Of a DNA stretch of 44,256 bases, positions 5,004-44,256 are shown one piece after another (within the stretch, counting starts at the first letter, position 1; every line of letters begins with the position of its first letter). The notes below the pieces were generated by a model. That model was not told the origin of the DNA. It did no database searches and saw only the letters and a program-made list of their open reading frames with translations. Source of the stretch: Phycisphaerales bacterium (GTDB lineage Bacteria > Planctomycetota > Phycisphaerae > Phycisphaerales > UBA1924); contig JAFIFZ010000004.1 of NCBI GenBank assembly GCA_020831775.1, forward strand, positions 1-44,256. The letters are read 5' to 3'. A program made the position numbers and the translations under genes.

Positions 5004-6526
5004 GAGTAGGTAATCCTCGGATCGGCCATGGCGTACAGCAGGTCTGCCAGCAGCAACGCCGCGATGTTCACGGCAGAGATGATCGCCGTCGTCGCCAGGA
5101 TCACCTCGCGGTCACGCTGGTAGATCGCGTCGAGCGTCAGGCGCCCCATCCCGTTGATCGAGAAGATCGTTTCGATCACCACCGAGCCCGAGAGCATCGC
5201 CGGGAAGATCGAGACAAACATCGTGATCAAGGGCAGCAGGCTGTTGCGGAACACATGGCGGAAGATGATGTCATTCGAGCGGACGCCCTTCGCCTTGGCG
5301 GTGCGGACATAGTCCGCGTTGAAGTTGTCGAGCATCGCCGCACGCGTCTGCTTGCTGAGCACCGCGAACCCGCCGTAGACCAGGCAGACCACCGGCAGGC
5401 AGAGGTGCCAGAGCGCATCGAGCAGGTACCCCCGCACCCACTCGCCCTCGATCACTGTCGGCAGGAAGGGCATCCGCTCTGCGCCGGACGAGTGCAGCCC
5501 CGAGGTCGGGAACCAGCCGAGGTAGTCGTTGCTGGAGAGGAACCCGATCGCCAAGACACCCGCCAGCGGGATCGGGAACGACCAGAGCGCCACAAAGAGC
5601 GCTCCCATCCCCGTGTCGAGCGTCGTGCCCTGTCGCGTCGCAGCCAAGATGCCCGAGGGCACCGCGATCGCGTAGATCAGCACCGACGCGATGATGTTCA
5701 AGAGCAGCGTGATCGGCAGGGCCTCGGCGATCAGCTGCGAGACCGGGCGGCTGCTGCTGAAGCTCCGCCCGAGGTCGGGCGTCGCGAGCCCGACACCCCC
5801 GATCCCGATCCCCTCCAGGGGGTAGGGACGCGCGTTCATCGCGCTGATGAACCTCGTGCGGTGGCTCTGGGCGTTCCCGTACGCCGTGAGCATCTGCGCC
5901 GCGAGCCGCTCGACCTCCGCCGCACGCTCGTGCGTCGGGTCGAACTCGATCGAGCGGAGCCGGTCGGAGCGCACCGTGCCGTCGGACCGCACCGCCTGCC
6001 CTTGCCCGGTCGCCCTGAGGTAGCCGGCCAGCTCCTGCTGAAACATGGCTCTGCCCGAGACATACCGGGCCCTCGCCTGGGCGAACGCGCCATCGACCCG
6101 CCTGAACGCACGGTCGCGGTCCTCCGCCGACGCGTCACGCGAGCGCAGGACCTCGGGCAACTCCTCGGGCTCTGGGACTTGCAATTCTTCGGTGAACCAA
6201 CGCCAGGCCAGCGGCGTGTCGAGTTGGCGGGGCCGCCGCACACGCTCGCCGTCGGGCTGCACCAACGCCCGGTTGCCGATCTTCACCGGGCTGATCTGCG
6301 ACAGCCAGCGGAGGTACTGCACAGGAGCCGGGTCGTCCAGCCCGTAGCGATCGTTGAGGTAGGCCTCCTGGATCGCGCGGCTTGTCGCCTCCATCTGGCC
6401 GCCCGAGGCCCGCAGCCCCGCGCCGATCCCGCCCGGGCTCAGCGCCACGAGCATGAACACGACGAAGGTGATCCCGATGAGCGTCGGGATCATCAGCAAC
6501 AGGCGTCTGATGAGATACGAGATCAT
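5000..6526 (-). CDS. oppB: Peptide-type ABC importer permease B with large extracytoplasmic insert (OppB/DppB family)
   Basis: The protein is 508 aa against about 310-340 for typical OppB. It begins as the family does ([22 protein letters not shown]1 about 9-30). The conserved YLRWL lies near 71-75. About 160 mostly hydrophilic, helix-like, Arg/Glu-rich residues then precede the conserved [23 protein letters not shown] region near 251. The EAA loop is recognisable as [23 protein letters not shown], and the last TM ends at [13 protein letters not shown]. The insert lies between TM1 and TM2, which faces outside in this family. The gene is separated from the binding-protein gene by an 81-base gap holding a hairpin, and its stop overlaps the next permease start. 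Confidence 0.92.
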
Positions 6527-16863: not shown

Positions 16864-17958
16864 ATGCGCTGCCGCTTAGGCTTCAGGTCCGCGCTGCACG
16901 CGACGCTGCTGTCGTGCGTGGTTGTGTTGACCCCCGGCTGCTCCGAACGAACTGAAGAGCGTCCCGAGCGGCCCCAGCGTCCTGCCGCCGAGCCCCAGAC
17001 CCGCGACGAGGATCTCCGCTCGGGAGCGATCCGCTTCGGCATCAAAGACCCGCCCGCCAAGGCCCCCGGGGCTGTCCGGCTGGCGACCTATAACCTCGAA
17101 AATCTGATCGCCGTCCCCGCCGATGACCAGTCGGCGGGCAAGCCCCCCGCGGAGGTCTCCGCCTTGGCCGAGACGATCCGGCGGCTGGACGCGGACATCC
17201 TGGCCGTGCAGCAGGTCGATTCGCTCGACACCCTCCAGCGGTTCAACGACGAGCACCTCGGCGAGATGGGGTACACCCACATCATCACGGCCGACACGGG
17301 CGACCCGCGCGGCATCCAGCAGGGCGTCCTCAGCCGCTTCCCGATCGTCACCTACCAGTCGTGGCCCGGGATGGAGCTCGGGGGCGAGCACCCGGAGATG
17401 TTCGGCGATCGCCCGAACTTCTTCGCCGGCCAGCCCGTTCGCTACAGGCGCTCCCCGCTCAAGGCGGTCGTCCAGATCCCCGCGGAGGAAGACCACCTGG
17501 AGCTGACGCTGCTGGTCGTGCACCACAAGTCCCACCCGCTGAGCTCCTACTGGCGCGAGGCGGAGGCGAGGGCCCTGACCGAGAAGATCCGCACGATGCA
17601 GGGCGAGCGGTCCGAGCGGCTGATCGCCGTGCTGGGCGACTTCTCCGCCGAGATCGACCACGCGAGCGTCAGGATCTATCTGGAGGTCGGCCTCCGCGAC
17701 GCCCAGCAGCCCGAGTTGATCGAGACGGGCGAGCAGACGCTGCCCGAGAAGAAGTGGGCGACCCACACCACCGGGACGCGGATCGACATGATCCTGGTCA
17801 ACGAGCCGCTCTGGAAGCTGATCGAGCCGAGCTCGGGCTTCGTGCTGGGGACGCCGGCCCGCGCCCCGTGGGAAGGCCGCCAGGACCCCAAGCCCGAGGG
17901 CTGGGCGTCGGACCACTACCCGGTGGCTGTGGACATGCGGGTGGGCGACGATGAGTGA
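16864..17958 (+). CDS. EEP-family (endonuclease/exonuclease/phosphatase) putative lipoprotein with altered active site
   Basis: The 364-aa protein has an N-terminal hydrophobic segment ending in LTPGC (Cys26), a weak lipobox, so it is probably exported and perhaps lipid-anchored. I prefer ATG 16864 over ATG 16849 because GAGG lies 9 bases upstream of it. The EEP fold is clear: LATYNLENL, DADILAVQQVD, GVLSRFPIV, LLVVHHKS, LGDFSAEID, GTRIDMILVNEPL and SDHYPVAV. Two positions are unusual. The metal-binding Glu of the normal QE(V/I) motif is Gln (QQV), and the Asn of GDFN is Ser. The conserved His and the SDH triad remain. Catalysis may be altered or lost. Substrate is unknown. Confidence 0.85.
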   Translation: MRCRLGFRSALHATLLSCVVVLTPGCSERTEERPERPQRPAAEPQTRDEDLRSGAIRFGIKDPPAKAPGAVRLATYNLENLIAVPADDQSAGKPPAEVSALAETIRRLDADILAVQQVDSLDTLQRFNDEHLGEMGYTHIITADTGDPRGIQQGVLSRFPIVTYQSWPGMELGGEHPEMFGDRPNFFAGQPVRYRRSPLKAVVQIPAEEDHLELTLLVVHHKSHPLSSYWREAEARALTEKIRTMQGERSERLIAVLGDFSAEIDHASVRIYLEVGLRDAQQPELIETGEQTLPEKKWATHTTGTRIDMILVNEPLWKLIEPSSGFVLGTPARAPWEGRQDPKPEGWASDHYPVAVDMRVGDDE

Positions 17959-36438: not shown

Positions 36439-36623
36439 GACGCAGGGCCTCCCTCAGACCGTCTGCGACGACGGGGGCACCATGCCCCCGGGTCCAGCTT
36501 CCAAACCTTGACAAGGTACCGGAAAGGCGTGGCGTCGGTCAAGACGCGACCGAAGATCGTCCCCGTCGGTAAGGTGTACCGTTGACACTCGTGAAAGACC
36601 CAAAAGGATGCGGAGCACGACAA

Positions 36624-38696
36624 ATGACCTCTGACGCACGCCCCCGTGCCGGACGCACACACACGCTCGCGGCACTCATCCTGTGCGCATCGGTCGGCTG
36701 CGGGGTTGCGTGGGCCGAGGAACGGGTCCGGGTGACGCCGATTTCCGGCGGGCTGGGTCTGTTTGACCTTCAGGCCTCACCCCCCCCGGGGGCCGGGGTC
36801 ACGGGCGCGGTGGTGCTCCTGGACCGCCCGGGTAGAGCGACCCTGCTGGAGGCGCCGCTGCACCCGGTCGGTGAGAGCGACGACGCGTGGGGCGGGCGGC
36901 TGATGGCCGGAAGTGAAGGCGACGGATCGGTGCGGTTCAGCGTGGTCTGGAGCACGCCGGAGGGCCGGGTCGAGCAGGGGCCGATCGAGGCCTCCGCCGA
37001 GCCGGAGTTCCCAACGCCCGACTGGGCCAAGGGCGCCGTCTGGTACCAGATCTTCCCGGAGCGGTTCCGCAACGCCAACCCGCTGAACGACCCGGCGCAG
37101 CCCGGCGTTTTCCGCCCGGCGTGGAACAGCCCGTGGTTCGAGGTCTCGCTCGCCGAGGTCGAGGCGAACTGGATGGCGTCGGCCTCGCTGGGGTACACCA
37201 TCGACCCGGATGTGCCCGGCGGCTTTCTTTACAACAGCGTCTGGCACCGGCGTTACGGCGGCGACCTGCAGGGCGTGGTCGAGAAGCTCGACCACATCCG
37301 TTCGCTGGGGGTGACGGCGATCTACTTCTGCCCGGTCTTCGAGGCCAGGTCGATGCACAAGTACGACGCCGCGGACTTCCGCCACATCGACGCCAACCTC
37401 GGGGATACTGGCGTGCCCCGCGTCGAGTACGAGGTTCACCCCGACGAGACGGTCGATCCGGAGACCTGGGTCTGGACGCCCGCGGACATCTACTTCCTCG
37501 AAGTTCTCCTGCCCGAGGCCCGCAAGCGCGGGATGCGCGTCATCATCGACGGCGTCTGGAACCACACGGGCCGGGAGTTCTGGGCGTTTCAGGATGTGCT
37601 CGAACACGGGGCGGACTCGGAGTTCGCCGAGTGGTTCCAGGTGCGCTTTGACGACGAGGGCCAGGTCGTCGGCTGGCGGGCGTGGGATCGTGAGAACGGC
37701 TACCTCCCCGCCTTCCGCCAGGTTCCAGACTCTGACGGAGGCAACCTGCACCCGGAGGTAAAGCGGCACATCTTCGATGTCACCCGGCGCTGGATGGCCC
37801 CCGACGGGGATGTCTCCCGGGGGATCGACGGCTGGCGCCTCGATGTCGCGGCGGAGGTGCCCCAGGGTTTTTGGCGCGAGTGGCACGCGCTCGTCCGCGA
37901 GATCAACCCCGATGCGCTGACGATCGCGGAGATCTGGTTCCCGGCGACGGACTTTCTCCGGGGCGATCAGTTCGACGCGCAGATGAACTACCCCTTCGCG
38001 TATCCGGTGCTGAGCTGGCTGGGCACGACGCCGGGGACGACCGCGTCGCAGCTCCGGCGAGCGCTGGAGGCGGTCTTTGTGCAGCGCCCGGAGGTCGATC
38101 TTGTGCAGATGAACCAGCTCGACTCGCACGATGTCGAGCGGATCTACCCGATGCTGAACAACCCCGGGCGTGGGTACGACCAGCAGGCGAGGCTGTTTGA
38201 GCGTCCGGCCGCGGATCGGTACGACCCGACCCGACCGCCCGATGAGATCTACCGCGACGCGATGCTCGGCGTGGCGATCCAGGCGATGTACATGGGCTCG
38301 CCGATGATCTACTACGGCAACGAGCTGGGCATGACCGGGGCCGACGACCCGGACAACCGGAAGCCGACGCCTTGGCCCGACATGGGCCCCTACCACCCCG
38401 ACGACGAACCGATGCCCGAGCTCGTCCGCGAGTACGCCTCGTGGTTCAACCTCCGGTCGGACCCGACGCTCGGGCCGGTGCTGCGTTACGGCTCGGTCCG
38501 CCACCTCGACGCGGGGCGGGAGGATGTGTTCGCGTTCGTTCGCCAGCTCAACGAGCTTGAGGTGCTGGTGGTGGTCAATCGTTCTCGGACAGGGGCGTAC
38601 GACGCCTCTGGCCTGCTTGGGTCGCTGGGCTGGGGCGCGGGCGGGAGCGAGCCCGTGGCGACGCAGTCGGCGCGGTGGTGGCTGATCCGACGCTAG
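36624..38696 (+). CDS. Secreted GH13 alpha-glucan hydrolase (neopullulanase/cyclomaltodextrinase-like)
   Basis: The 690-aa protein starts at ATG 36624, with GGAG 8 bases upstream; the in-frame TTG 36582 is less likely. A signal peptide (about 13-31, ending VAWA) exports it; a Cys at 26 could make it a lipoprotein. A small N-terminal beta domain is followed by GAVWYQIFPERF (137-148), typical of the cyclomaltodextrinase/neopullulanase branch. The GH13 regions follow: DGVWNHT (309-315), GWRLD with nucleophile Asp407, IAEIWF with acid/base Glu436, and SHD with Asp503. The C-terminal beta domain closes it. It should cleave maltodextrins or pullulan outside the cytoplasm. It is divergent from the sugar importer cluster, suggesting shared carbohydrate use. 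Confidence 0.93.
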   Translation: MTSDARPRAGRTHTLAALILCASVGCGVAWAEERVRVTPISGGLGLFDLQASPPPGAGVTGAVVLLDRPGRATLLEAPLHPVGESDDAWGGRLMAGSEGDGSVRFSVVWSTPEGRVEQGPIEASAEPEFPTPDWAKGAVWYQIFPERFRNANPLNDPAQPGVFRPAWNSPWFEVSLAEVEANWMASASLGYTIDPDVPGGFLYNSVWHRRYGGDLQGVVEKLDHIRSLGVTAIYFCPVFEARSMHKYDAADFRHIDANLGDTGVPRVEYEVHPDETVDPETWVWTPADIYFLEVLLPEARKRGMRVIIDGVWNHTGREFWAFQDVLEHGADSEFAEWFQVRFDDEGQVVGWRAWDRENGYLPAFRQVPDSDGGNLHPEVKRHIFDVTRRWMAPDGDVSRGIDGWRLDVAAEVPQGFWREWHALVREINPDALTIAEIWFPATDFLRGDQFDAQMNYPFAYPVLSWLGTTPGTTASQLRRALEAVFVQRPEVDLVQMNQLDSHDVERIYPMLNNPGRGYDQQARLFERPAADRYDPTRPPDEIYRDAMLGVAIQAMYMGSPMIYYGNELGMTGADDPDNRKPTPWPDMGPYHPDDEPMPELVREYASWFNLRSDPTLGPVLRYGSVRHLDAGREDVFAFVRQLNELEVLVVVNRSRTGAYDASGLLGSLGWGAGGSEPVATQSARWWLIRR

Positions 38697-38759: not shown

Positions 38760-38939
38760 AGGCGATATCCGGATGCTGATTCTCGTTTCTCGTTCGGGCG
38801 ACGAGCGTGCGAGAAGATGTTTGCGTCGGGGCGGAAAATCGCGACAATGAACGACGCGCCGAGAGGCGCAGCCCCGGCCCGGCGTGTGGCCGCAGTCGGG
38901 GCATGGATATCGATCCATCCGGATCTGAGGGAGTTCATC

Positions 38940-40973
38940 ATGTGGAAAAAAGGTCTTTCCGGGGCCGCGCTTGTCGCGGTGCTCGCCGGGCACGCGGCGT
39001 CGCAGGTCACTGTCGACGGCTCGCTCGACGGCGATGAGGTCTGCTACGGACAGCTTCTCTGGGTGCAGAACCAGCCGACCAGCTTCGGCGACAACACCCC
39101 GGCGAATGTCCCCCCCGCGGGCGACGCCTCGACCGCGACCTCCGGGGTCGAGATCGTCATCCCGCTCAGCGCGATCGGGAACCCGACGGGGCCGTTCCGC
39201 CTTGCCGGGTGGGTCGCTTCGGGCGACGGCTCGTTCCTGAGCAACCAGGTCATCGGGGGCCTGCCCAACCTCGGCAACGCCCCGATCGACTTCGGCGACA
39301 TCTCGGGCCAGCAGTTCATCACCATCGACCCGACCGTGCTCACGACGCCGCCGGTCGTCGACGGCCAGGTCGACAGCGCGTACGGCCCGCGCCAGGACGA
39401 CTGGCTGCAGAACAACTTCACCGGCTTCGGCAACGCGACGCACGGGAACCAGGCCGGGGGCGACGGCTCGGAGATCGACCAGATCTTCGCCGCGGTCTCG
39501 GGCGGGAACCTCTACCTGATGATCGCCGGCAACCTCGAGGCGAACGCCAACATCATGGCGCTCTACTTCGATGTCGCCCCGGGCGGGCAGTCGACGCTCT
39601 CGTCGTTCAATCCGCCGGTCGCGAACCCGTCGAACCCGGACATCGTCGATGTGCTGGGGCCGCAGAGCGACATCTCGTTCGACAGTGGGTTCGGCGCCGA
39701 CTACGCGGTGATTGTCTCAGGGCGGAATGTCGCGCCGTCCGGCGATCCCGAGGACTTCCAGACGGGCATGACCGTCGTTGCTCTTGAAACCGGCTCGGTG
39801 GTGTTCGCGGGCAACGGGCGCTACGGCAGCGACGGCGCCGCCAACCCCACGCTGGTCAACGGCCAGCTCCCCGGCGCGCAGATGGTCATCGACAACTCCA
39901 ATACACAGGGCGTTTCCGGCAGCCCGCCCATCCAGATACCGTCGCAGGCCGACGCGGTCGGTTCTGAGATCAACGGCCTGTTCGGCTTCGTCGACCCCGA
40001 CACCAACCGGCTGAACCTGCTCATCACCGGCAACCTCCAGACCAACTTCAACAAGCTGGCCCTCTTCTTCGATGTCCAGCCCGGCGGGCAGAACACCCTC
40101 CGCGAGGACAACCTCGACATCGATTTCAACGGGCTCAACCGCATGGGCGGCCCGGGCGCCGGCGCCAACCCGACCGAGCCCGGCCTGACTTTCGAAGACG
40201 ACTTCTTCGCCGACTACTTCCTCAGCGTCGGCACGGGCAATGTCCCGGTGCAGATCTTCGTGAACGCGACCACGCTGCGGACCAACGGGCCGCTGGTCAA
40301 CTTTTCCGGCTTCCCCGTCGACTACTCCGCGTTCGACGGCGGCGATCGCGCCGACAACTTCCCGGTCGACTTCGGCGGCCCGAGGCTGGACGGGCAGGAC
40401 GGCTTCACCCCGCAGATCATCACGAACTACCCGCCGCGCACCGTCGGCGACGCGCTGGTCGGCCAGGGCGGCACCGGCACGCCCCCCGCGCCCGACGCCG
40501 GGCTCATCCAGGTCTTCATCGACAACTCGAACATCGGCGGCGTGACCGACACCGATGTCTCCGACGCCCCGAATGTCACCACCGGCATCGAGATCTCGAT
40601 CGACCTCGACGAGCTTGGCTGGGACGGCGTCTCGGAGATCAAGGTCGCCGGCGGCATCGCCAGCGGCGGGTACGACTTCTGGTCCAACCAGGTGCTCGGC
40701 GGGCTGCCCGGCCCCGATAACCTCGGCGAAGCCCGACAGATCAACTTCGCCTCCCTCTCCGGCACGCAGTATGTCGTGATCCCCGTCCGCGCCTGCGATC
40801 CGGTCGCCTGCCCGCCCGACCTCAACGGCGACGGCGTGGTCGACGCAGACGACTTCTTCCTGTTCCTGCAGTTCTTCGCGGCCGGTGATCCCCGCGCCGA
40901 CTTCAACAACGACGGCGTGATCGACGCCGACGACTTCTTCGACTTCCTCAGCGCCTTCGCCGCCGGCTGCTGA
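38940..40973 (+). CDS. Exported protein with GC-type dockerin C-terminus
   Basis: The 677-aa protein starts at ATG 38940, with GGGAG 6 bases upstream. A signal peptide (MWKKGLSGAALVAVLAGHAAS) precedes VTVDGSLDGDE. A module at about 68-130 (SGVEIVIPLSAIG ... SNQVIGGLPNLGN ... ISGQQFITI) recurs near 547-610 (TGIEISIDLDELG ... SNQVLGGLPGPDN ... SGTQYVVI). Between them are two further similar units containing EIDQIFAAV ... FDVAPGGQSTL and EINGLFGFV ... FDVQPGGQNTL. Residues 624-677 are a dockerin-like pair of Ca-binding loops (DLNGDGVVDADD and DFNNDGVIDADD) and the chain ends in Gly-Cys. The module is known in Phycisphaerae proteins as a GC-type dockerin. Function is unknown; surface attachment is likely. 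Confidence 0.88.
   Translation: MWKKGLSGAALVAVLAGHAASQVTVDGSLDGDEVCYGQLLWVQNQPTSFGDNTPANVPPAGDASTATSGVEIVIPLSAIGNPTGPFRLAGWVASGDGSFLSNQVIGGLPNLGNAPIDFGDISGQQFITIDPTVLTTPPVVDGQVDSAYGPRQDDWLQNNFTGFGNATHGNQAGGDGSEIDQIFAAVSGGNLYLMIAGNLEANANIMALYFDVAPGGQSTLSSFNPPVANPSNPDIVDVLGPQSDISFDSGFGADYAVIVSGRNVAPSGDPEDFQTGMTVVALETGSVVFAGNGRYGSDGAANPTLVNGQLPGAQMVIDNSNTQGVSGSPPIQIPSQADAVGSEINGLFGFVDPDTNRLNLLITGNLQTNFNKLALFFDVQPGGQNTLREDNLDIDFNGLNRMGGPGAGANPTEPGLTFEDDFFADYFLSVGTGNVPVQIFVNATTLRTNGPLVNFSGFPVDYSAFDGGDRADNFPVDFGGPRLDGQDGFTPQIITNYPPRTVGDALVGQGGTGTPPAPDAGLIQVFIDNSNIGGVTDTDVSDAPNVTTGIEISIDLDELGWDGVSEIKVAGGIASGGYDFWSNQVLGGLPGPDNLGEARQINFASLSGTQYVVIPVRACDPVACPPDLNGDGVVDADDFFLFLQFFAAGDPRADFNNDGVIDADDFFDFLSAFAAGC
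40809..40948 (+). repeat. Dockerin-coding repeat, copy 1
   Basis: This 140-base segment aligns without gaps to 44117-44256. I count 13 differences, and 40887-40941 is identical to 44195-44249 including synonymous sites. It encodes CPPDLNGDGVVDADDFF and DFNNDGVIDADDFF. Confidence 0.85.
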
Positions 40974-41002
40974 CCAACACTCGGCCTGACTGGTACCGAC
41001 TC

Positions 41003-41036
41003 ACGCCCCCGTCGGCACGACCGGCGGGGGCGTTTT
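41003..41036 (+). terminator. Rho-independent terminator after the 38940-40973 gene
   Basis: Thirteen-base arms (41003-41015, ACGCCCCCGTCGG; 41021-41033) with one G-U pair enclose CACGA and run into TTTT. It lies 29 bases after the stop. Confidence 0.85.
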
Positions 41037-41347
41037 CGTTCGTTCAAGGTTCGCCCCGACCAACCCGATGACCCCTCACTTGGGCGCCGCGGCGGTTTGG
41101 ACGCGTCGTCTGTTTGGTTACTGGAGAGCACGATCCGGCTTCTCACCCGATCCGCATCCTCACGCTGACCTTTCGCATACTTCTACGCCCGACACAATCG
41201 GTCTTCCGAGGGTCCAATATCATACAAAGCGCTTGCGTTGCGCTCATGGATTGACGAGAATGCAGTGCTCGCCAGGGGGCAGCGGGATGTCGTAGGCCCG
41301 CTCTCAGCCGTTTCTGCCCGGCCTTCTGGCCAAGGAGAAAGAAAAAC
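41037..41347 (+). promoter_or_regulatory. Leader/promoter region of the beta-helix protein gene
   Basis: No gene is seen here. An AT-richer patch around 41214-41228 (CCAATATCATACAAAG) contains TATCAT, a possible -10. AGCGC and GCGCT (about 41229-41245) form a short inverted repeat after it. The ribosome binding site AAGGAG lies about 10 bases before ATG 41348. It could pair with the CCTT a few bases upstream (GGCCTTCTGGCCAAGG), possibly masking initiation. All of these are weak calls. Confidence 0.35.
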
Positions 41348-44256
41348 ATGATCCGTATCCGTTCCGCAAGCACCTGCAGCGTTCGCTGCATGAGCGCGCT
41401 CGTTGTCTCAATGGTCGCCGGCCACGCCGCCGCAGCGACGATCAATGTTCCCGCCGACCAGCCGACCATCCAGGACGCGGTCAATGTCGCCAATACCGGC
41501 GACGAGATCGTCGTCGCCGACGGCACCTACTCCGGCTTCGGCTTCACCAATGTCGACCTGCAGGGCAAGGACTTGGTGATCCGCTCGGCCAACGGCCCGG
41601 CGAGCACCACGCTCAACGGCTTGTTCCAGGGGCGCGCGTTCCTGATCACCTCCGGCCAGACCAGCGCCACCGTGATCGAGGGCTTCACCTTCGACAGCCA
41701 CGGCGACTTCTTCACCGACGAGGGCGGCGCCATCCTCGTCCAGAACTCGGCCGCCACCATCCGCAACAGCGTCTTCCGCAACGGCAGCGCTTTGGACGGC
41801 GGCGCGATCGCCGCCATCAGCGGCGCGCAGGTCACCATCGAAGGCTGCGAGTTCGGCGAGCCCGATTTCGCCGACTCCGGCGGCGCGATCTACATCGCCG
41901 ACAGCAGCGTCACAATCGACGACTCGGAGTTCAAGGACATCGACCTCGACCTGGTCTCCGGCGGCGGCTCGGGCGGCGCGATCTACATGGTCGGCGGCAA
42001 CCTGACGGTCACCAACAGCAACTTCGAGAACCTCACCGCCGGCCAGGGCGGCGCGCTCCGCGCGATCGGCTCGTCGACGAACATCGTCGAGACCTCGTTC
42101 ACCAACTGCACCTTCCGCAACAACACGACCTCCAGCATCGGCGGCGCACTCCGCTTCCTCAACGCCGACGCCACTCTCGTCGACTGCGTCTTCGAGAACA
42201 ACACCGCCGGCAACCAGGGCGGCGCGATCTACGGCGCCGGCCTGTTCATGGATGTCGTCGAGAATGTCCAGTTCATCAACAACCGCGCCGTCGATCCCAT
42301 CGGCGGCGGCAACTGCCTCGGCGGCGCCGTCCGCTTCGCCGCCCAGGGCGCCCGCCTCTCATACGGCAACTTCGTCGACTGCCTGTTCGAGGGCAACACC
42401 GCCTCCAACAGCGGCTCCGGCGGCGGCCAGTCGCGCGGCGCGGCGGTGTACCACTTCTCAGGCGACTCCGTCTTCACCAACTGCGTCTTCCGCAACAACG
42501 AGAACCGCGGTGCAACCACCGGCGTCTCGACCCACGGATCGGTCGTCGTGCTCGGGATCGCCGATGTCACCTTTACCGACTGCCTGTTCGAGGGCAATGT
42601 CGCCCGTATCGCCGACGACAACAACGCGACCGCATGGGGCGCTGCGATCAGCTGCTTCAGCTCGACGGGCGAGGTGACCATCGACGGCTGCGAGTTCATC
42701 AACAACGACGGCCAGCAGGGCGCCGTCTACCTGCAGTCGTCCGCCGGCAGCAACCGCCCCGTCCATGTCGTGACCAACTCGCTGTTCGAGGGCAACACCA
42801 CCAACTTCGGCGCCCTCCGAGCGGTCACCAACACCGAAAACATCATCACCAACACCATCTTCCGCAACAACACCTCAACGAGCGCCCGCGCCGCACTCGC
42901 GATCCAGAACGAGGACAACATCACCCTCGTCGAGAATTGCGTCTTTGAGAACAACTCATCCGACGGCAACGGCGGAGCCATCGGCATCTTCAACCCGCTC
43001 GAAGTGACCATCCGCGACTCGGTGTTTGACGGTAATACCAGCGCCGGGAGCAGCGGCGGCGCCATCCGAGTCGACAACACCGACGCGGTCTCCCACGCCA
43101 CCACCATCCTCATTGAGGGCAGCGAGTTCCGCAACAACGAGGCCAGCTTCGGCGCCAGCATCTCGATGCCCCTCTTCGCAGGATCCAACGGTGTCACAAT
43201 CACCGTCCGCGACAGCCTCTTCGAAAGCAACTCAGGCGCGTGGGGCGCGGGCATCCACACCCAGGGCTTTGTCACCGACGGCATCGCCCCGTCCGTCGTC
43301 CCCGTGGTCGTCGTCGAGAACTCAACCTTCCGCAACAACACCACCACCTCCGGCGGTGCGGCCATCCGCTTCAACAACACCGCCGACGCCACCGTGGTCG
43401 GTTCCCTTATCGAGAACAACACCACCAACGGCTCCGGCGCCGGCGTCTGGGCCCAAGGCGTCAGCGGCGACGGCATCCGCGACACGATCATCCGCAACAA
43501 CAACGCCATCCTCAACGGCGGCGCCGTCTTCCACACCGAGGTCGCCGATGTCTCCTCCACACTCAACATCGTCAACTCCCTGATCGCCGGCAACTCCACC
43601 GAGATCGGCGGCGGCCTCTACGCCGAGGGCGACACCACCACCAACCTCCTCAATGTCACCTTTGCGGAGAACTCCGGCGAGCTTCTCGCCAACAGCATCA
43701 ACGCCGACAACGGCGCCGAGGTCCGCCTGGACAACTCCATCGTCTGGAGCGGCTCGGGCGTCGCATTCGAGCAGATCGCCGTGGGCTTCGACGCCAATAT
43801 CACCGCCAACTGGTCGAACATCCAGGGCGGCGAGACCGGCGTCACCGGCAGCGGCACCACCAACTGGCTCGCCGGCAACATCGACGGCGACCCCCAGTTC
43901 GCCGACACCGCCAACGACGACTACACCCTCGGCGAGGGCTCGGCCTCCGTCGACGCGGGCGACAGCTCGCTCGTCAGCGGCATCGACTTCGACCTCGCCG
44001 GCAACGCCCGCGTGATCGACGCGGTCAACTACGCCACCACCGGCCCGAGCACGCCCGCCGTCGACCACGGCGCCTACGAGGCTCCGGCCAACCTGCCCGG
44101 CGGCACCGGCCCGAGCTGCCCGCCCGACCTCAACGGCGACGGCGTGGTTGACGCCGACGACTTCTTCCTCTTCCTCAGCCTCTTCGCTTCAGGCGATCCC
44201 CGCGCCGACTTCAACAACGACGGCGTGATCGACGCCGACGACTTCTTCGCCTTCCT
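41348..44256 (+). CDS. Exported parallel beta-helix repeat protein with GC-type dockerin (3' end cut by window)
   Basis: At least 969 aa are encoded from ATG 41348, and the frame stays open to the window end. The signal peptide runs to about residue 29 (ending AGHAAA). The next part, TINVPADQPTIQDAVNVANTGDEIVVADGTY, is the usual opening of pectate-lyase-like right-handed beta-helices. Many rungs then repeat the pattern Cys/Ser-x-Phe-x-x-Asn ... Gly-Gly-Ala (for example CVFENN, CLFEGN, CTFRNN, with GGAI or GGAL), as in Pmp-like and chlamydial-type polymorphic surface proteins. From residue 924 CPPDLNGDGVVDADDFF and DFNNDGVIDADDFF form a dockerin-like end matching the preceding gene. Only the last few codons are missing. 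Probable adhesin or polysaccharide-binding surface protein; no catalytic residues identified. Confidence 0.88.
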   Translation, partial: MIRIRSASTCSVRCMSALVVSMVAGHAAAATINVPADQPTIQDAVNVANTGDEIVVADGTYSGFGFTNVDLQGKDLVIRSANGPASTTLNGLFQGRAFLITSGQTSATVIEGFTFDSHGDFFTDEGGAILVQNSAATIRNSVFRNGSALDGGAIAAISGAQVTIEGCEFGEPDFADSGGAIYIADSSVTIDDSEFKDIDLDLVSGGGSGGAIYMVGGNLTVTNSNFENLTAGQGGALRAIGSSTNIVETSFTNCTFRNNTTSSIGGALRFLNADATLVDCVFENNTAGNQGGAIYGAGLFMDVVENVQFINNRAVDPIGGGNCLGGAVRFAAQGARLSYGNFVDCLFEGNTASNSGSGGGQSRGAAVYHFSGDSVFTNCVFRNNENRGATTGVSTHGSVVVLGIADVTFTDCLFEGNVARIADDNNATAWGAAISCFSSTGEVTIDGCEFINNDGQQGAVYLQSSAGSNRPVHVVTNSLFEGNTTNFGALRAVTNTENIITNTIFRNNTSTSARAALAIQNEDNITLVENCVFENNSSDGNGGAIGIFNPLEVTIRDSVFDGNTSAGSSGGAIRVDNTDAVSHATTILIEGSEFRNNEASFGASISMPLFAGSNGVTITVRDSLFESNSGAWGAGIHTQGFVTDGIAPSVVPVVVVENSTFRNNTTTSGGAAIRFNNTADATVVGSLIENNTTNGSGAGVWAQGVSGDGIRDTIIRNNNAILNGGAVFHTEVADVSSTLNIVNSLIAGNSTEIGGGLYAEGDTTTNLLNVTFAENSGELLANSINADNGAEVRLDNSIVWSGSGVAFEQIAVGFDANITANWSNIQGGETGVTGSGTTNWLAGNIDGDPQFADTANDDYTLGEGSASVDAGDSSLVSGIDFDLAGNARVIDAVNYATTGPSTPAVDHGAYEAPANLPGGTGPSCPPDLNGDGVVDADDFFLFLSLFASGDPRADFNNDGVIDADDFFAF
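44117..44256 (+). repeat. Dockerin-coding repeat, copy 2 (reaches window end)
   Basis: This is the partner of 40809-40948. It encodes the same two calcium-loop module at the end of the beta-helix protein. The window ends inside it, so the expected final Gly-Cys cannot be seen. Confidence 0.85.

What the first reader, a model, noticed from the sequence alone, without database searches (positions are those of the whole stretch)
40809..44256. Adjacent GC-type dockerin genes with almost identical 3' DNA
The 140-base segments differ at 13 positions, and 55 consecutive bases are identical including synonymous sites, while the upstream parts of the two proteins are unrelated. This suggests recent module exchange or gene conversion. 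The Gly-Cys end of the complete copy suggests a sorting or anchoring signal whose receptor is not in this window.
Basis: partly seen in the sequence, partly recalled or inferred. Interest (0 to 1): 0.5.

Follow-up and report, generated by a model that had tools for sequence, protein, structure and literature searches.

The report
Genome-wide docking tag closed by cysteines
Two neighbouring bacterial genes end in the same short calcium-binding docking tag, but this genome carries over a hundred copies of that tag, so the pair is ordinary, and the tag's last cysteine most likely locks it shut against a cysteine at its other end.

Summary
In detail: 13 of 138 shared bases differ, the longest identical run is 55, the upstream proteins are unrelated, and copy 1 ends Gly-Cys. 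The pair is not special. The domain is the catalogued family NF041540, 'GC-type dockerin', with 120 matches in this genome; each copy's neighbour ranks only 20th and 19th of 95 by DNA identity. Copy 2 is cut by the contig end, at an exact 141-mer shared with two other contig ends. Over 43 orthologue pairs with a sister genome, dockerins diverge at synonymous sites like their passengers (identity 0.836, 0.843): mainly vertical descent. Dockerin exchange between unrelated genes is real genome-wide (7 pairs against 0.09 expected) but not shown for this pair. The sorting-signal reading is not supported. The terminal Cys co-occurs with a Cys at the domain's start; the pair sits where the ends of a 27+27 repeat meet and holds the only cysteines of 38 of 83 mature proteins. 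A disulfide clasp is the best explanation. No cohesin was recognised in this genome; the receptor is unknown.

The parts
38940..40973 (+). gene 1: likely secreted passenger (signal-peptide-like start MWKKGLSGAALVAVLAGHAASQ) with a C-terminal GC-type dockerin; the longest ATG frame starts at 38817
   Evidence: ORF; NF041540 60.8 bits; the start choice is inference from the sequence
40809..40970 (+). dockerin copy 1, complete, 54 aa, CPPDLNGDGVVDADDFFLFLQFFAAGDPRADFNNDGVIDADDFFDFLSAFAAGC
   Evidence: model of mean pLDDT 95.2
40809..40811 (+). Cys 1, proposed first half of the clasp, three residues before the first calcium loop
   Evidence: co-occurs with the C-terminal Cys
40818..40853 (+). first EF-hand-type calcium loop (DLNGDGVVDADD)
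   Evidence: read from the sequence; EF-hand and dockerin models match weakly, below their cut-offs
40899..40934 (+). second EF-hand-type calcium loop (DFNNDGVIDADD)
   Evidence: read from the sequence; EF-hand_6 E 5e-4, below its cut-off
40968..40970 (+). C-terminal Cys 54, proposed second half of the clasp
   Evidence: a Cys lies within the last four residues in 112 of 118 genome copies with a visible stop
41348..44256 (+). gene 2: passenger with Chlamydia-PMP/POMP-type repeats and a GC-type dockerin, cut by the contig end
   Evidence: contig length 44256
44117..44256 (+). dockerin copy 2, incomplete (46 codons and 2 bases)
   Evidence: NF041540 48.1 bits; 138-base comparison
44116..44256 (+). 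141 bases identical to the right ends of contigs C20 and C64 (the latter reversed): an assembly break at the repeat

Best explanation
Both genes carry one of up to about 118 copies of a catalogued C-terminal docking domain, the GC-type dockerin, which tags many unrelated and probably secreted proteins of this bacterium (a Phycisphaerales relative). The copies are alike because they share descent, strong protein-level selection and biased codons. On top of that comes a low rate of dockerin duplication or conversion between genes, which does not single out this pair. Mechanism (inferred): after export the domain folds around two calcium ions, and Cys 1 and Cys 54 form a disulfide at the point where the two 27-residue repeats meet, closing the domain's ends. 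The near-symmetric closed domain then binds an unidentified receptor on the cell surface or in the matrix. Shown here: the copy number, the boundaries, the vertical signal, the paired occurrence of the cysteines and a confident model that aligns to dockerins. Inferred: the disulfide bond, calcium binding, export and receptor docking.
For: 120 matches to NF041540 in the 3.55 Mb genome, 119 of them over the cut-off; two (contig C80) are other EF-hand proteins. The pair ranks 20th and 19th of 95. In 254 pairs of 0.9 identity or more with unrelated passengers, identity is about 0.35 upstream (rising to 0.73 in the last six bases), 0.81-0.98 inside and about 0.3 beyond the stop, so likeness ends at the domain edges. 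Pooled synonymous identity of orthologues, passenger against dockerin: 0.843/0.836 (43 pairs), 0.825/0.824 (31), 0.860/0.864 (23); the orthologous dockerin is the best match in 29 of 43, 16 of 31 and 19 of 23. Cysteines: of 330 distinct dockerin tails, both ends 281, N only 10, C only 16, neither 23, odds ratio 40. The halves match at 17 of 27 positions in copy 1, and across 94 copies the only positions that never match are 1 and 27, the places of the two cysteines. Of 83 proteins that have both cysteines and a crude signal-sequence call, 38 have no other Cys in the mature part. The model has pLDDT 95.2 and aligns to dockerins 2vn5_D (Z 5.5, 2.6 A, 53 residues) and 2y3n_B (Z 5.5, 2.4 A, 56 residues) over nearly its whole length. 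Non-covalent clasps between dockerin ends are known (PMC5934362, passages seen).
Against: Neither disulfide oxidase tested was found in this genome: DsbB in 0 of 31, VKOR in 10 of 31 but not in G000. Sixteen of 330 tails have only the C-terminal Cys. The odds ratio counts related sequences, and many 'neither' rows are other dockerin classes. Dockerin synonymous divergence is more scattered than the passengers' (chi2 68.6 for 43 pairs, p 0.008; 173.3 for 31; 67.3 for 23), and 19 of 43 copies are at least as close to some paralogue as to the orthologue, so exchange is not negligible. The Z values are moderate and Foldseek gave no match at E 0.001 or less.
Confidence: 0.72

Rival explanations
1. 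Recent gene conversion or unequal crossing-over between the two adjacent genes copied the dockerin from one to the other.
For: Its identity, 0.906, is the highest among 47 neighbouring pairs with unrelated passengers, and such neighbours are somewhat more alike than distant pairs (mean 0.831 against 0.799, p 2e-5). Its codon sharing exceeds 195 of 200 shuffles. Copy 1's orthologues are only 9th of 54 and 5th of 34 in closeness to it, while those two orthologues are best matches of each other.
Against: Eighteen or nineteen copies rank ahead of the neighbour. Copy 2 shares only 2 of 6 of the bases that set copy 1 apart from its orthologues. Thirteen scattered differences in 138 bases do not look recent.
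Confidence: 0.08
2. The terminal Gly-Cys is a processing or anchoring signal: the Cys is lipidated or joined to a surface component by a dedicated enzyme.
For: A Cys is within the last four residues in 112 of 118 copies, and NCBI names the family 'dockerin domain-anchored'.
Against: No hydrophobic or basic tail follows the Cys in copy 1; 37 of 196 two-Cys domains have 1 to 3 residues after it; it travels with an N-terminal Cys; sortase 0 of 31, rhombosortase 0 of 31 over cut-off, exosortase in 31 of 31 regardless of the domain. Generic rhomboids and unknown enzymes are not excluded.
Confidence: 0.12
3. The two cysteines make disulfides between molecules, crosslinking dockerin proteins or dockerin and receptor.
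For: In 38 of 83 proteins these are the only cysteines of the mature part, so links between molecules would also use them up.
Against: Their joint presence or absence and their placing at the two ends of an internal repeat fit a bond within one domain better; non-covalent clasps within a domain are known in dockerins.
Confidence: 0.12
4. The shared 141-mer at the contig end is an assembly artefact, and copy 2's true sequence differs.
For: All three contig ends stop at exactly 141 shared bases, the mark of an assembler k-mer, and another pair of ends (C49/C33) also overlaps by 141.
Against: Two unrelated passengers run into the same 141-mer, which reads of about 150 bases could support (inference); other high-sharing pairs with unrelated passengers lie inside contigs.
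Confidence: 0.2

Closest known systems
NCBIfam NF041540 (dockerin_GC, GC-type dockerin domain-anchored protein)
   Same: Both proteins score above the curated cut-off, at the C terminus.
   Different: No difference found; these are members. I saw the family only as a name and model; one search found no paper in the held library with the phrase 'GC-type dockerin'.
Type I dockerin (Pfam PF00404) of cellulosomes
   Same: Two EF-hand-type loops and two main helices; the model aligns to solved dockerins; the profile's best match among solved chains is dockerin 2y3n_B, E 1e-6.
   Different: Scores below Pfam's cut-off (17 and 13.9 against 22.9). It has a Cys at each end, and no cohesin was recognised in the genome.
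Intramolecular clasp of the Ruminococcus flavefaciens ScaA dockerin (Trp-Pro stacking; PMC5934362, passages seen)
   Same: A contact between the N- and C-terminal ends stabilises the module.
   Different: There it is ring stacking; here a disulfide is proposed.
'Planctosome' cohesin/dockerin proposal for freshwater Phycisphaerae, Nemodlikiaceae (PMC6461901, passages seen)
   Same: Dockerin modules on peptidases of Phycisphaerae; here too three S8, one M14, one M64 and one M12-type match are among 81 of 111 longer dockerin proteins scanned.
   Different: That model needs cohesins, and none was recognised here.

Membership tests
NCBIfam NF041540 GC-type dockerin | score above the curated cut-off of 29 bits | tested here: met
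   60.8 bits (copy 1) and 48.1 bits (copy 2, truncated)
NCBIfam NF041540 GC-type dockerin | C-terminal Gly-Cys | tested here: met
   copy 1 ends Gly-Cys-stop; 99 of 118 copies with a visible stop end exactly so; copy 2 is cut by the contig end and could not be tested
Type I dockerin (PF00404) | score above the Pfam gathering cut-off | tested here: not met
   17 and 13.9 bits against 22.9; 8 of 81 genome proteins scanned match at E 0.001
Type I dockerin (PF00404) | dockerin fold with two calcium loops | tested here: inconclusive
   pLDDT 95.2 model; Z 5.5 to 2vn5_D and 2y3n_B, no Foldseek match at E 0.001
Cellulosome-like cohesin-dockerin system | a cohesin partner in the genome | tested here: inconclusive
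   PF00963: no match in G000, G001 or G002, and in only 3 of 31 genomes; profile of five cohesin stretches from those relatives: no match in G000 at E 0.1; a diverged cohesin could be missed and the assembly is about 95% complete
Sortase/exosortase/rhombosortase-type C-terminal sorting signal | hydrophobic segment and basic tail after the motif | tested here: not met
   the protein ends at the Cys; in 37 of 196 two-Cys domains 1 to 3 residues follow, in the other 159 none
Sortase/exosortase/rhombosortase-type C-terminal sorting signal | a processing enzyme that co-occurs with the domain | tested here: not met
   searches set; enzymes of unknown families were not tested
Disulfide-clasped dockerin (working hypothesis) | a bond between Cys 1 and Cys 54 | not testable with these tools
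   co-occurrence only; no coordinates, no chemistry

The most novel reading that the evidence does not exclude
GC-type dockerins are a covalently closed, pseudo-cyclic docking tag: a disulfide replaces the missing link between the two repeats and keeps both faces of a near-symmetric domain usable. They serve a surface-display system with on the order of 100 (perhaps 200) client proteins per genome in some Phycisphaerales, and the receptor is either not a cohesin or a cohesin too diverged for present models.
Probability: 0.45. Interest if true: 0.62.

Novelty: new member of a known kind. Interest (0 to 1): 0.36.

Why it matters
It turns a local curiosity into a concrete question: a planctomycete spends over a hundred genes on one docking tag, and its receptor is unknown. 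The disulfide-clasp reading can be tested on one small recombinant domain. The repeat also breaks short-read assemblies, so genomes of this group may often lose the ends of such genes.

Tried and rejected
Conversion between the two neighbours: tested by rank, orthologues and derived sites; not supported. Pure codon bias: rejected, because sharing exceeds passenger codon usage (0.712 against 0.617 over 94 copies) and column shuffles. Processing enzymes: exosortase, rhombosortase (weak rhomboid matches in 31 of 31 and in all 14 controls, none over the cut-off) and sortase do not track the domain. Receptor: PF00963 and a five-row profile gave no candidate in this genome. The genomes with cohesin matches are G010 (96 dockerin matches), G012 (3) and G030 (0); G010's three-cohesin protein lies on a 3.6 kb contig and may be a contaminant. 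One search added only weak matches in G024 (E 9e-4) and G006 (E 0.08). Oxidases for my own reading: VKOR and DsbB gave no support. Cysteine parity in passengers: 64 even against 19 odd, but passengers with none drive this, and among the rest it is 26 to 19. The signal-peptide check was a crude script (94 of 111), not a trained predictor. Foldseek gave 27 matches at E up to 10, none at 0.001.

Cysteine counts changed as I corrected where the script placed the first loop: 57 tails from loci other than those I took from G000-G002: 51 both; 367: 280 both, 9 N only, 54 C only, 24 neither; 244: 196, 7, 27, 14; 330: 281, 10, 16, 23. I use for co-occurrence and only for the residues after the last Cys. 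At least two 'C only' rows visibly hold an N-terminal Cys beside a degenerate loop; I left them as counted. The 189 rows outside G000-G002 include named records of the two sister genomes; identical tails were merged. One search's results were discarded because its pattern was one residue short; one search stopped on a missing locus.

Rows dropped: orthologue tests used 99 G000, 54 of 77 G001 and 34 of 64 G002 copies (register-length, or cut by contig ends; not all regions of G001 and G002 were fetched), passengers of at least 60 residues, reciprocal best hits of 60% identity over 60% of the shorter. One search leaves out the C64-end copy and pairs with fewer than 36 same-residue codons. Pfam was run on 81 of 111 longer proteins.

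Papers: searches showed me, in titles and abstract starts, no description of a disulfide-closed dockerin or of GC-type dockerins in the held library; most subscription journals are missing and I did not read the listed papers. PMC11557425 was searched for passages only. PMC11266412 was searched for dockerin, cohesin and cellulosome: none.

Full report
WHAT IS THERE. The window is the whole of contig 36 (44,256 bases) of an 84-contig genome of 3.55 Mb. Gene 1 (from 38940 or 38817 to 40973) and gene 2 (from 41348 to the contig end) both end in a domain that scores above the cut-off of NCBIfam NF041540, GC-type dockerin (60.8 and 48.1 bits); copy 1 has 54 residues. The passengers are unrelated; gene 2's carries Chlamydia-PMP/POMP-type repeats.

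GENOME CONTEXT. The genome has 120 matches to the family, 119 over the cut-off; two of them (contig C80) are other EF-hand proteins, and a few fragments at contig ends may be halves of one gene. One DNA copy used as query found 40 places, itself included, at 87% or more, with only 40 of 299 candidates scored. Among 96 copies in register (94 complete ones and two cut by contig ends) the pair's identity of 0.906 is reached by 5.4% of 4560 pairs, and 19 and 18 copies rank ahead of the neighbour. Copy 2 is incomplete because the contig stops there: its last 141 bases equal the ends of contigs C20 and C64, the signature of a k-mer branch in a short-read assembly (that k=141 suggests MEGAHIT is recalled). 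Two genes with unrelated passengers, on C36 and C20, thus share 141 identical bases beginning one base before the first Cys codon.

HOW THE COPIES EVOLVE. I fetched two genomes of the same genus in part (54 of 77 and 34 of 64 copies used) and paired passengers by reciprocal best hit (at least 60% identity over 60% of the shorter). Pooled synonymous identity is the same in dockerin and passenger: 0.836 and 0.843 over 43 pairs with G001, 0.824 and 0.825 over 31 with G002, 0.864 and 0.860 over 23 between G001 and G002. The orthologous dockerin is the best match in 29 of 43, 16 of 31 and 19 of 23, far above a chance of about 1 in 54 or 1 in 34. So the module is mostly inherited with its gene. There is also real exchange. 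Dockerin divergence is over-dispersed (p 0.008 for the first comparison, smaller for the others, where a few rows dominate). Nineteen of 43 copies are at least as close to a paralogue as to the orthologue, and in 6 of those 19 the closest paralogue has a related passenger. Among 4331 pairs with unrelated passengers, 42 share 0.9 or more of their same-residue codons against 3.7 in shuffles, and 7 share 0.95 or more against 0.09; three of these 7 involve the copies cut at the C36 and C20 ends. Identity stops at the domain's edges: about 0.35 upstream and about 0.3 after the stop. For the window pair the sharing is 36 of 42 codons against 30.65 in shuffles (5 of 200 reach it), and copy 2 mostly lacks copy 1's derived bases (2 of 6). 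Neighbours are in general somewhat more alike than distant pairs even when passengers are unrelated (0.831 against 0.799), and this pair has the highest value of the 47; local exchange in the family is therefore possible, but it is not shown for these two genes.

THE CYSTEINES. In G000 a Cys lies within the last four residues in 112 of 118 copies with a visible stop; 99 end exactly in Gly-Cys. Across 330 distinct dockerin tails from this genome, two sisters, other Planctomycetota and a few outsiders, N- and C-terminal Cys co-occur (281 both, 10 N only, 16 C only, 23 neither). Cases with neither Cys include the C54:6908 gene and its G002 counterpart, L248, L222, L267, L224 and L229, so joint absence probably arose more than once; I did not count events on a tree. 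The 54 residues are a 27+27 repeat, identical at 17 of 27 positions in copy 1. Over 94 copies, positions 1 and 27 of the repeat never match, because there Cys 1 faces residue 28 (Pro in the consensus) and residue 27 (Asp) faces Cys 54. By that symmetry the 27-28 peptide bond of the first junction has its counterpart in the Cys54-Cys1 pair. This is an inference from the repeat; the model (pLDDT 95.2, helices 16-28 and 43-55 of a 57-residue stretch that starts three residues before Cys 1) could not be measured. Of 83 proteins with both cysteines and a crude signal-sequence call, 38 have no other Cys in the mature part. A non-covalent clasp between dockerin ends is documented (PMC5934362, passages), so a covalent one is a modest step. 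Against it, neither DsbB nor VKOR was found in this genome.

WHAT IT PROBABLY DOES. Clients are diverse; 81 of 111 longer proteins were scanned and include peptidases S8, M14 and M64, a GH18, beta-propellers and beta-helices, most of them once to three times. Secretion is supported only by a crude check (94 of 111). Docking to a receptor follows from the dockerin likeness (best E 1e-6 to dockerin 2y3n_B among solved chains; Z 5.5). No cohesin was recognised in this genome. In a draw of 294 genomes of the phylum 20 match and 11 are over the cut-off, most copies being in the window's own family; 23 of 31 relatives match, 21 over the cut-off. The freshwater 'planctosome' proposal (PMC6461901, passages) is the nearest published idea that I saw, but it needs cohesins.

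VERDICT. The pair is an ordinary sample of a known, highly amplified domain. The new element worth testing is the disulfide clasp and the missing receptor.

Noticed in passing
L062:15938-19282 (G000), L121:10841-14374 (G001), L171:1242-4535 (G002): Passengers share 0.96-0.98 of synonymous codons between species while the G002 dockerin shares only 0.84 and ranks 5th of 34: a good candidate for a dockerin swap.
   Followed up: no
L099:1291-2226 (G000) and L177:1542-2477 (G002): Aligned passenger identical between species (synonymous identity 1.00) but dockerin only 0.907; a chimeric contig or contamination is possible.
   Followed up: no
L084:1055-3674 (contig C30 copies at 6454 and 8177): Neighbouring dockerins with unrelated passengers share 39 of 40 same-residue codons, and a few residues read past the stop are also alike.
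   Followed up: no
window 36582-38696: An alpha-amylase-like gene lies just upstream of gene 1.
   Followed up: no
G000 contigs C27, C65, C72, C64, C20 and C36: Several contig ends fall inside, or within ten bases of, dockerin copies, so the repeat fragments this assembly and the copy count may be slightly off.
   Followed up: partly
L077:16040-16162 and L077:19117-19233 (contig C80, matches at 17039 and 20116): Two weak family matches are other EF-hand proteins without the two cysteines.
   Followed up: no
G032, G064, G124: Near-complete genomes of another genus of the same family with about 220 first-look candidates each, only 19 of them scored per genome: better material than this assembly for conversion analysis.
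   Followed up: no
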